From assembly GCA_018873225.1 (NCBI GenBank), contig JAEILZ010000004.1:3162001-3226000 (forward strand): a DNA stretch of 64,000 bases. Reading direction: 5' to 3'. Below the pieces are notes generated by a model. That model did no database searches, was not told the DNA's origin, and saw nothing but the letters and a program-made list of their open reading frames with translations. The translations under genes and the position numbers were made by a program. Below are positions 50,783-51,014 of this stretch, one piece after another (positions within the stretch are counted from its first letter, which is position 1; each line of letters begins with the position of its first letter). The DNA is from [Phialemoniopsis] sp. UDSM-2020 (lineage: Eukaryota; Ascomycota; Sordariomycetes; Thyridiales; Thyridiaceae).

Positions 50783-50807
50783 GGACTTGTGGTCTAGTGG
50801 TATGATT

Positions 50808-50873
50808 GTGAGTAAAACAAAAAGAACGAAATCCATGACTAAAAAGCCCACTGAACTAACAATCTCTCCACAG
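50808..50873 (+). other. Insert 1 in tRNA-Pro, spliceosomal-type (66 nt)
   Basis: It starts GTGAGTAAAAC, contains GAACTAACA (branch-type CTAAC about 16 nt from the end) and ends CTCTCCACAG. It separates tRNA positions 26 and 27. Size, donor, branch and acceptor all match the mRNA introns of neighbouring genes in this window (for example GTGAGT donors in both MFS genes). Confidence 0.75.
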
Positions 50874-50884
50874 CTCGCTTAGGG

Positions 50885-50905
50885 TAACACCCAAAAGCAA
50901 TCTCT
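50885..50905 (+). other. Canonical tRNA intron (37/38), 21 nt
   Basis: This sequence interrupts the anticodon loop one base 3' of the anticodon, the standard eukaryotic nuclear tRNA intron position. Its CACCC can pair with the anticodon-loop GGGT, as in the anticodon-intron pairing recognised by the tRNA splicing endonuclease. Confidence 0.8.
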
Positions 50906-50913
50906 TGCGAGAG

Positions 50914-50972
50914 GTATGTTACGGTCCCACAGGGAGTAAATTTGTGAGCCCACAAATTAACAATATAACAAG
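50914..50972 (+). other. Insert 2 in tRNA-Pro, spliceosomal-type (59 nt)
   Basis: It starts GTATGTTACGG, contains AAATTAACAA (TTAAC branch-type) and ends TATAACAAG, lying in the variable loop. It is flanked by AG and GT, an AG|GT protosplice context; AGGT at both junctions makes the exact border ambiguous by up to four bases. An 8-bp perfect stem (AATTTGTG 50939-50946 with CACAAATT 50951-50958, loop AGCC) lies inside. Confidence 0.7.
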
Positions 50973-51007
50973 GTCCCGTGTTCGATCCACGGCAAGTCCC
51001 CAATATC

Positions 51008-51014
51008 TTTTTTT
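51008..51014 (+). terminator. RNA polymerase III T7 terminator
   Basis: Seven consecutive T residues start 8 nt after the tRNA 3' end, which is a standard Pol III stop. Confidence 0.8.

What the first reader, a model, noticed from the sequence alone, without database searches (positions are those of the whole stretch)
50783..51014. tRNA-Pro(AGG) carrying two spliceosomal-type introns plus the canonical intron
Removing 50808-50873, 50885-50905 and 50914-50972 leaves a flawless 72-nt tRNA-Pro with intact A and B boxes and a T7 terminator. The 66-nt and 59-nt inserts have GTGAGT...CTAAC...CACAG and GTATGT...TTAAC...CAAG, matching the mRNA introns nearby in size and signals; the second lies in an AG|GT context. 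mRNA-type introns are established in some fungal U6 snRNA genes (also Pol III). I am not aware of them in a nuclear tRNA. If real, one transcript would need both the spliceosome and the tRNA endonuclease, and splicing would act on a Pol III RNA.
Basis: partly seen in the sequence, partly recalled or inferred. Interest (0 to 1): 0.92.

Follow-up and report, generated by a model that had tools for sequence, protein, structure and literature searches.

The report
Spliceosomal-type introns in fungal tRNA genes
A fungus appears to carry messenger-RNA-style introns inside many of its transfer-RNA genes, so that its basic decoding molecules would need the mRNA splicing machine as well as the usual tRNA-cutting enzyme before they could work.

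Summary
Confirmed, and larger than reported. The window belongs to a 44.2-Mb Sordariomycete-like fungal genome. Its tRNA-Pro(AGG) gene (50783-51000) has two spliceosomal-type inserts (66 and 59 nt) plus the canonical 37/38 intron. I found 20 more tRNA genes with such inserts: 21 genes, 24 inserts, plus one degenerate copy left out. Signals: GT and G5 in 24 of 24, AG in 23 of 24, YTRAY branch motif 10-15 nt from the end in 24 of 24, length 48-66 nt in 23 of 24 (one is 189). After excision ARAGORN gives the expected tRNA in 21 of 21. None of 14 canonical introns delimited is GT-AG. At shared sites the Phe and Pro copies keep near-identical exons while inserts diverge. The only two Phe loci found genome-wide each need two such splicings. 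Boundaries picked by tRNA structure alone include GT-AG in 16 of 21 tested (3 expected). Most likely the spliceosome removes these introns from Pol III pre-tRNAs; that step is inferred, as there is no RNA evidence. Ten searches of open-licence papers showed me no precedent in tRNA genes.

The parts
50783..50807 (+). exon 1 of tRNA-Pro(AGG): acceptor 5' strand, D arm, nt 26
   Evidence: its first 21 nt are exact at five loci in the genome
50790..50800 (+). A box (TGGTCTAGTGG), uninterrupted
50808..50873 (+). spliceosomal-type intron 1 (66 nt), between nt 26 and 27; absent from the other four Pro(AGG) copies
   Evidence: GTGAGT 5' site, CACAG 3' site; other copies; no other copy in the genome by BLAST
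50856..50860 (+). branch-site motif CTAAC of intron 1 (A at 50859, 14 nt from the 3' end)
50874..50884 (+). exon 2: anticodon stem 5' strand and loop through nt 37; anticodon AGG at 50881-50883
50885..50905 (+). canonical tRNA intron (21 nt) at 37/38; not GT-AG
50906..50913 (+). exon 3: nt 38, anticodon stem 3' strand, start of variable loop
50914..50972 (+). spliceosomal-type intron 2 (59 nt), variable loop (about 45/46), AG|GT context; same site interrupted in the two C4 Pro(AGG) genes
   Evidence: GTATGT..TTAAC..ACAAG; same site in L055; no other copy in the genome by BLAST
50957..50961 (+). branch-site motif TTAAC of intron 2 (A at 50960, 12 nt from the 3' end)
50973..51000 (+). exon 4: T arm, acceptor 3' strand, discriminator C
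   Evidence: 28-nt 3' half exact at three loci
50980..50988 (+). B box core GTTCGATCC
51008..51014 (+). T7 run, likely Pol III terminator

Best explanation
This is a functional nuclear tRNA-Pro(AGG) gene carrying two ordinary U2-type spliceosomal introns and one canonical tRNA intron, one of at least 21 tRNA genes in this genome with such introns. Pol III, driven by the internal A and B boxes, would make one precursor ending at the T run (inferred). The spliceosome would recognise the 5' site, the CTAAC branch site and the AG and remove the inserts, and the Sen endonuclease and ligase would remove the 37/38 intron (inferred, order unknown). The restoration of tRNAs by excision, the splice signals, the recurrence in many genes and the exon-versus-intron divergence in the Phe and Pro copies are shown; splicing itself is inferred.
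For: 24 of 24 inserts have 5' GT and G5, 23 of 24 have 3' AG, 24 of 24 have YTRAY (19 CTAAC) with its A 10-15 nt from the end, and 23 of 24 are 48-66 nt. Internal control: of 14 canonical introns in the first 18 genes, 0 are GT..AG and 0 have the branch motif at that distance. Structure-only boundaries include GT..AG in 16 of 21 inserts against 2.96 expected. Insert-free paralogues of iMet, Gln(CTG) and Leu(CAG) show the same boundaries by reading. Copies with inserts at shared sites (exons counted with canonical intron): Phe exons 97%, inserts 64-65%; Pro C4 pair 100% and 79%; Pro C6 versus C4 92% and 59%; Trp 79% and 62%; 50-nt upstream flanks 58-64%. A 27-nt Phe 3' half occurs at two loci genome-wide at up to 3 mismatches, and both carry two inserts at the same sites. 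An A-box-like stretch can be read in the uncut DNA of 21 of 21 genes, shortened in Glu (loose pattern).
Against: No RNA data. Splice signals guided my reading of most boundaries. In the structure-only test 5 of 21 failed: Leu(CAA), where the unique optimum ends in GG, and Leu(CAG), Gly(CCC) C4, eMet C1a and Met C1b, where another cut scores higher; much of the 2.96 expected comes from three Pro inserts with 183-207 tied optima, which prove little. ARAGORN calls alone do not discriminate: in 95 held loci (139,268 bases) single cuts with real motifs gave 59 calls of 3,236, complemented motifs 61 of 3,711 and reversed motifs 16 of 3,900, many of the decoy calls at the same interrupted genes. Two of 24 inserts contain TTTT against 3.0 expected, so there is no depletion that would speak for Pol III. 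Insert-free copies exist for several of the isoacceptors. The degenerate Met copy's insert is 88% identical to its paralogue's, not strongly diverged. Both Phe genes share one acceptor-stem mismatch (my reading).
Confidence: 0.88

Rival explanations
1. The inserts are non-canonical tRNA introns cut by the tRNA splicing endonuclease through bulge-helix-bulge structures, as in archaea, red algae and nucleomorphs; the splice-site resemblance is incidental.
For: Non-canonical and multiple tRNA introns exist in such systems, including eukaryotic ones (passages). A canonical intron is present in 17 of these 21 genes.
Against: 0 of 21 inserts tested meet a strict BHB test, though the canonical introns also score 0 of 14, so that test is weak. 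GT, G5, branch motif and AG at fixed spacing are unexplained by this.
Confidence: 0.05
2. The interrupted copies are dead tRNA genes invaded by intron-like DNA, and intact copies elsewhere do the work.
For: Copies without spliceosomal-type inserts exist for iMet, Gln(CTG), Leu(CAG) and Glu(CTC) and, by my reading of L046 against ARAGORN's label, Ser(GCT). One Met copy on C11 is degenerate.
Against: Only two Phe loci were found and both are interrupted. Of three nuclear Trp loci at up to one mismatch, two are interrupted and the third lacks part of the D arm. The two insert-free Pro(AGG) copies have shortened T loops. Phe and Pro exons are conserved while inserts and flanks diverge. 21 of 21 give complete tRNAs after excision.
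Confidence: 0.05
3. Mobile introner elements are spreading through the genome and recently landed in tRNA genes.
For: Inserts at many different sites in many tRNA genes imply repeated gain.
Against: The two inserts of the window gene match only themselves; the other 22 were not searched genome-wide. Among the first 21 inserts, pair scores exceed the best shuffled score only for the C4 Pro pair and for Glu versus Phe C1 intron 2. This concerns origin and does not exclude spliceosomal removal.
Confidence: 0.1
4. Assembly or chimera artefact.
For: Unnamed assembly, no reads available.
Against: 22 loci on eight contigs, with different insert sequences and the same signals.
Confidence: 0.01

Closest known systems
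mRNA-type intron in the U6 snRNA gene of fission yeast (other fungi recalled)
   Same: Spliceosomal intron in a short Pol III transcript of a fungus (passages of PMC10484740).
   Different: Here the host genes are tRNAs, many at once, and in 17 of 21 genes a second splicing system (Sen) would also act. The best U6 match in this genome spans 102 nt without an intron.
Ectopic and multiple tRNA introns of Cyanidioschyzon merolae and of nucleomorphs
   Same: Introns at non-canonical tRNA positions, up to three per gene, in eukaryotes (passages).
   Different: Those described are short (3-24 nt in Guillardia theta) or BHB-type and attributed to the tRNA endonuclease; here the inserts have spliceosomal signals and mostly lie near 55 nt.
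Archaeal non-canonical tRNA introns
   Same: Overlapping positions such as 25/26 and 45/46, and a tRNA-Pro with two non-canonical introns plus a canonical one (passage).
   Different: Archaeal ones are BHB-type introns; 0 of 21 tested here meet a strict BHB (weak test).
Spliceosomal introns in nuclear rRNA genes of fungi
   Same: mRNA-type introns in a structural RNA gene (one title seen in a reference list; otherwise recalled).
   Different: rRNA genes of that kind are Pol I transcripts (recalled); tRNAs are Pol III transcripts.
Canonical eukaryotic tRNA introns (37/38)
   Same: Present in 17 of the 21 genes.
   Different: Position, length (8-32 nt in 14 measured against 48-66 nt in 23 of 24) and signals differ.

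Membership tests
U2-type spliceosomal introns | GT at the 5' end and AG at the 3' end | tested here: met
   GT 24 of 24, AG 23 of 24; Leu(CAA) ends GG
U2-type spliceosomal introns | extended 5' splice site able to pair with U1 (G at position 5) | tested here: met
   G5 in 24 of 24
U2-type spliceosomal introns | branch-site motif at a fixed distance from the 3' end | tested here: met
   YTRAY with A 10-15 nt from the end in 24 of 24; CTAAC 19, CTAAT 3, TTAAC 1, CTGAC 1
U2-type spliceosomal introns | excision restores the functional RNA exactly | tested here: met
   21 of 21 give complete tRNAs by ARAGORN; structure-only optimum includes GT-AG in 16 of 21 tested, not in 5
U2-type spliceosomal introns | removal by the spliceosome through a lariat | not testable with these tools
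   needs RNA
Canonical eukaryotic tRNA introns | located one nucleotide 3' of the anticodon (37/38) | tested here: not met
   inserts lie in the D loop, near 25-27, at 32-35 and at 45-49; a separate 37/38 intron is present in 17 of the 21 genes
BHB (archaeal or red-algal type) tRNA introns | bulge-helix-bulge at the junctions | tested here: inconclusive
   0 of 21 inserts strict, but 0 of 14 canonical introns too
Group I / group II introns | match to the family models | tested here: not met
   no Rfam match at gathering score in the window, which covers two of the 24 inserts; 48-66 nt is too short for either kind (recalled)
Introner-type mobile introns | multiple similar copies in the genome | tested here: not met
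   introns 1 and 2 of the window gene match only themselves; the other 22 were not searched genome-wide

The most novel reading that the evidence does not exclude
In this fungal lineage the spliceosome has become an obligatory tRNA-processing machine. Spliceosomal introns have colonised about a quarter of the tRNA genes seen, including the only complete Phe, Trp, elongator-Met and Pro(AGG) genes found, so that single pre-tRNAs pass through two unrelated splicing systems and decoding capacity depends on spliceosome activity.
Probability: 0.78. Interest if true: 0.96.

Novelty: new variant of a known kind. Interest (0 to 1): 0.92.

Why it matters
Spliceosomal introns are thought of as belonging to Pol II transcripts, with U6 as the known Pol III exception, and nuclear tRNA introns as belonging to the Sen endonuclease (established knowledge; passages). 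A genome whose essential tRNAs need both would show that the spliceosome can act on tiny, highly structured Pol III RNAs. It would link translation capacity to splicing, give a natural system for intron gain in non-coding genes, and explain tRNA genes that annotation would miss: the passages I saw of the tRNAscan-SE 2.0 paper describe a search for non-canonical introns for archaeal tRNAs only.

Tried and rejected
Terminator depletion as support for Pol III: 2 of 24 inserts hold TTTT, 3.0 expected, so no support. BHB as a discriminator: uninformative, because canonical introns fail too. ORF-based mRNA-intron survey of the window: 56 candidates, mostly noise, so only a rough comparison; tblastn with eight GH63 homologues leaves a break near 28.25 kb and spans the candidate intron near 27.5 kb, without base-level boundaries. 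Splice-aware ARAGORN scan as a false-positive rate: decoy motifs give as many calls at interrupted loci, so it was replaced by the structure-only test, which was not run on the three inserts found later. Relatives: viral contigs gave none; genome contigs gave one uninterrupted tRNA-Pro(TGG) on a contig labelled a bacterial MAG, not informative. Fetched loci not resolved as tRNA genes or left out of the interrupted set: L062/L106 and L100, L094/L133/L134, L095, L096, L097, L104, L111, L118, L120-L124, L132. The C11 Met copy is left out because ARAGORN does not call it after excision. This is not a census: the tRNA family search scored 63 of 930 candidates, two pattern lists were cut short, and patterns built on the T arm cannot find inserts inside it. 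Literature: ten searches of open-licence PMC papers listed no paper whose title or shown abstract start reports spliceosomal introns in tRNA genes; I looked at passages of seven papers and opened none of the others; subscription journals and bioRxiv were not covered.

Full report
What is there. The window is C6:3162001-3226000 of a 44.18-Mb, 11-contig genome. Protein matches point to the Sordariomycetes: the best listed identity is 66% for a GH63 glucosidase and 80% over 59% of the query, or 77% over 88%, for a purple acid phosphatase; the class name rests on my knowledge of the organisms named there. At 50783-51000 the + strand reads as tRNA-Pro(AGG) interrupted three times: 66 nt after nt 26, 21 nt at the canonical 37/38 site, and 59 nt in the variable loop. 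Cutting out the two longer inserts gives tRNA-Pro(AGG) with a canonical intron by ARAGORN; the raw window gives no tRNA by ARAGORN and no Rfam match.

The paralogues. The first 21 nt occur exactly at five loci and the 28-nt 3' half exactly at three. Two genes on C4 have the canonical intron and an insert at the same variable-loop site, with GT..CTAAC..AG; their exons plus canonical intron are identical and their inserts 79% identical. Two copies on C8 have no insert, but their T loops are shorter by one and two bases; ARAGORN still calls one of them. So all three Pro(AGG) copies found with an intact T loop are interrupted, and the window gene alone has the additional insert at 26/27.

The wider pattern. 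I pulled out tRNA loci with the Rfam tRNA model and with T-arm-plus-terminator patterns, and read them for acceptor pairing and inserts. The result is 21 tRNA genes with 24 spliceosomal-type inserts: Pro(AGG) x3, iMet, Met(CAT) of elongator type x3, Gln(CTG), Ser(GCT), Leu(CAA), Leu(CAG), Arg(CCG), Arg(CCT), Gly(CCC) x2, Phe(GAA) x2, Glu(CTC), Trp(CCA) x2 and Lys(CTT). A 22nd locus, a Met copy on C11, is degenerate and is left out. In the loci I held, ARAGORN makes 68 further distinct calls outside these genes, some doubtful, so about a quarter of the genes seen are interrupted; this is not a census.

Signals. Of 24 inserts, 24 begin GT and have G at position 5, 23 end AG (Leu(CAA) ends GG), and 24 carry YTRAY (CTAAC 19, CTAAT 3, TTAAC 1, CTGAC 1) with the A 10-15 nt from the end; 23 are 48-66 nt and one is 189. 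The 14 canonical introns that I delimited in the first 18 genes are a built-in control: 0 of 14 are GT..AG, 0 of 14 have the branch motif at that distance, and they are 8-32 nt long.

Not just chosen by eye. For 21 inserts (the first 18 genes) I let a cloverleaf score alone pick the best deletion among 2,173-2,788 per insert. GT..AG is among the optima in 16 of 21, with 2.96 expected; much of that expectation comes from three Pro variable-loop inserts with 183-207 tied optima. In the 12 inserts with at most 7 tied optima it is there in 7, against about 0.2 expected when I add up the listed rates by hand. The five misses are Leu(CAA), where the unique optimum is the proposed cut ending in GG, and Leu(CAG), Gly(CCC) C4, eMet C1a and Met C1b, where another cut scores higher. 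Insert-free copies of iMet, Gln(CTG) and Leu(CAG) in the same genome show the same boundaries by reading. Against this, ARAGORN itself is a poor judge of boundaries: in 95 held loci single cuts with real motifs gave 59 calls of 3,236 candidates, with complemented motifs 61 of 3,711 and with reversed motifs 16 of 3,900, many of the decoy calls at the same interrupted genes.

Function by evolution. The two Phe genes hold inserts at the same two sites. Their exons plus canonical intron are 97% identical while the inserts are 64-65% identical, about the level of their 50-nt upstream flanks (64%). The Trp pair gives 79% against 62%, Pro C6 versus C4 92% against 59%, and the Met C1b versus degenerate C11 pair 95% against 88%. 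A genome-wide search for a 27-nt Phe 3' half with up to three mismatches finds only these two loci. Trp has three nuclear loci at up to one mismatch in a 20-nt pattern: two interrupted at the same D-loop site and one that by my reading lacks part of the D arm. The two exact elongator-Met matches are both interrupted, and one of the two at two mismatches (C6) carries the 189-nt insert, the other being the degenerate C11 copy. Unless genes are missing from the assembly or too divergent for the pattern, the cell cannot decode Phe without removing these inserts.

Promoter. An A-box-like stretch can be read in the uncut DNA of 21 of 21 genes with a loose pattern, shortened in Glu(CTC). In Gly(CCC) C6, Arg(CCT) and Lys the first G of the intron supplies the second G of that stretch (my reading). 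A run of four or more T follows within 25 nt in 19 of the 21 genes, not in Ser(GCT) or Lys (Met C6 from the sequence printed there); for genes found with the terminator patterns this is by construction.

How it probably works. Pol III makes one precursor; the spliceosome removes the mRNA-type introns, and Sen plus ligase remove the 37/38 intron. Shown: gene anatomy, signals, recurrence, and conservation of exons over inserts in the Phe and Pro copies. Inferred: polymerase, machinery, order. Several inserts lie in the anticodon loop; since Sen is described as measuring from the tRNA body (passage), in those genes it would presumably act after the spliceosome.

Origin. Introns 1 and 2 of the window gene have no other copy in the genome by BLAST. 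Among the first 21 inserts only the C4 Pro pair and Glu versus Phe C1 intron 2 score above the best shuffled pair, so no repeated introner family is seen. Of three U6 matches (102, 99 and 92 nt) the best has no intron.

Limits. There is no RNA. The search design cannot see inserts in the T arm. Literature cover is open-licence PMC only, ten searches, with passages seen of seven papers. The word stem 'spliceosom' occurs 0 times in the main text of PMC4090602 and of PMC8450103, and once in PMC3978253, about protein-coding genes.

Noticed in passing
L056 (C8:2737460-2737547, and C8 from 2737791 on the + strand): Two insert-free tRNA-Pro(AGG) copies in inverted orientation, each with a differently shortened T loop; possibly decaying copies.
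   Followed up: partly
L130 (C11:577820-577979): Degenerate Met(CAT) copy whose T loop is altered but whose spliceosomal-type insert is retained (88% identical to that of the C1b copy).
   Followed up: partly
L106 (C1:3474623-3474740) and L100 (C9:3709865-3709980): Two similar tRNA-like elements of about 116 nt with T arm and T run but no clear anticodon arm; perhaps a tRNA-derived repeat.
   Followed up: no
L094/L134 (C8:723071) and L133 (C11:2064000): Two similar elements with a B-box-like GTTCGATYCC, an AAGCCA end and T runs; no tRNA fold recognised.
   Followed up: no
L137 (C9:709155-709246): Weak U6 match preceded by a B-box-like GTTCGATTCC; may be a degenerate U6 or a fusion.
   Followed up: no
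L107, L108: Both Phe genes share one mismatch in the acceptor stem.
   Followed up: no
L129 (C6:3954810-3955107): The 189-nt insert of a Met(CAT) gene folds into a long hairpin (predicted -91.7 kcal/mol), which could bring its splice sites together.
   Followed up: partly
L124 (C10:1397182-1397285): tRNA-like gene, perhaps Ile(TAT), whose presumed canonical intron contains a run of six T, odd for a Pol III transcript.
   Followed up: no
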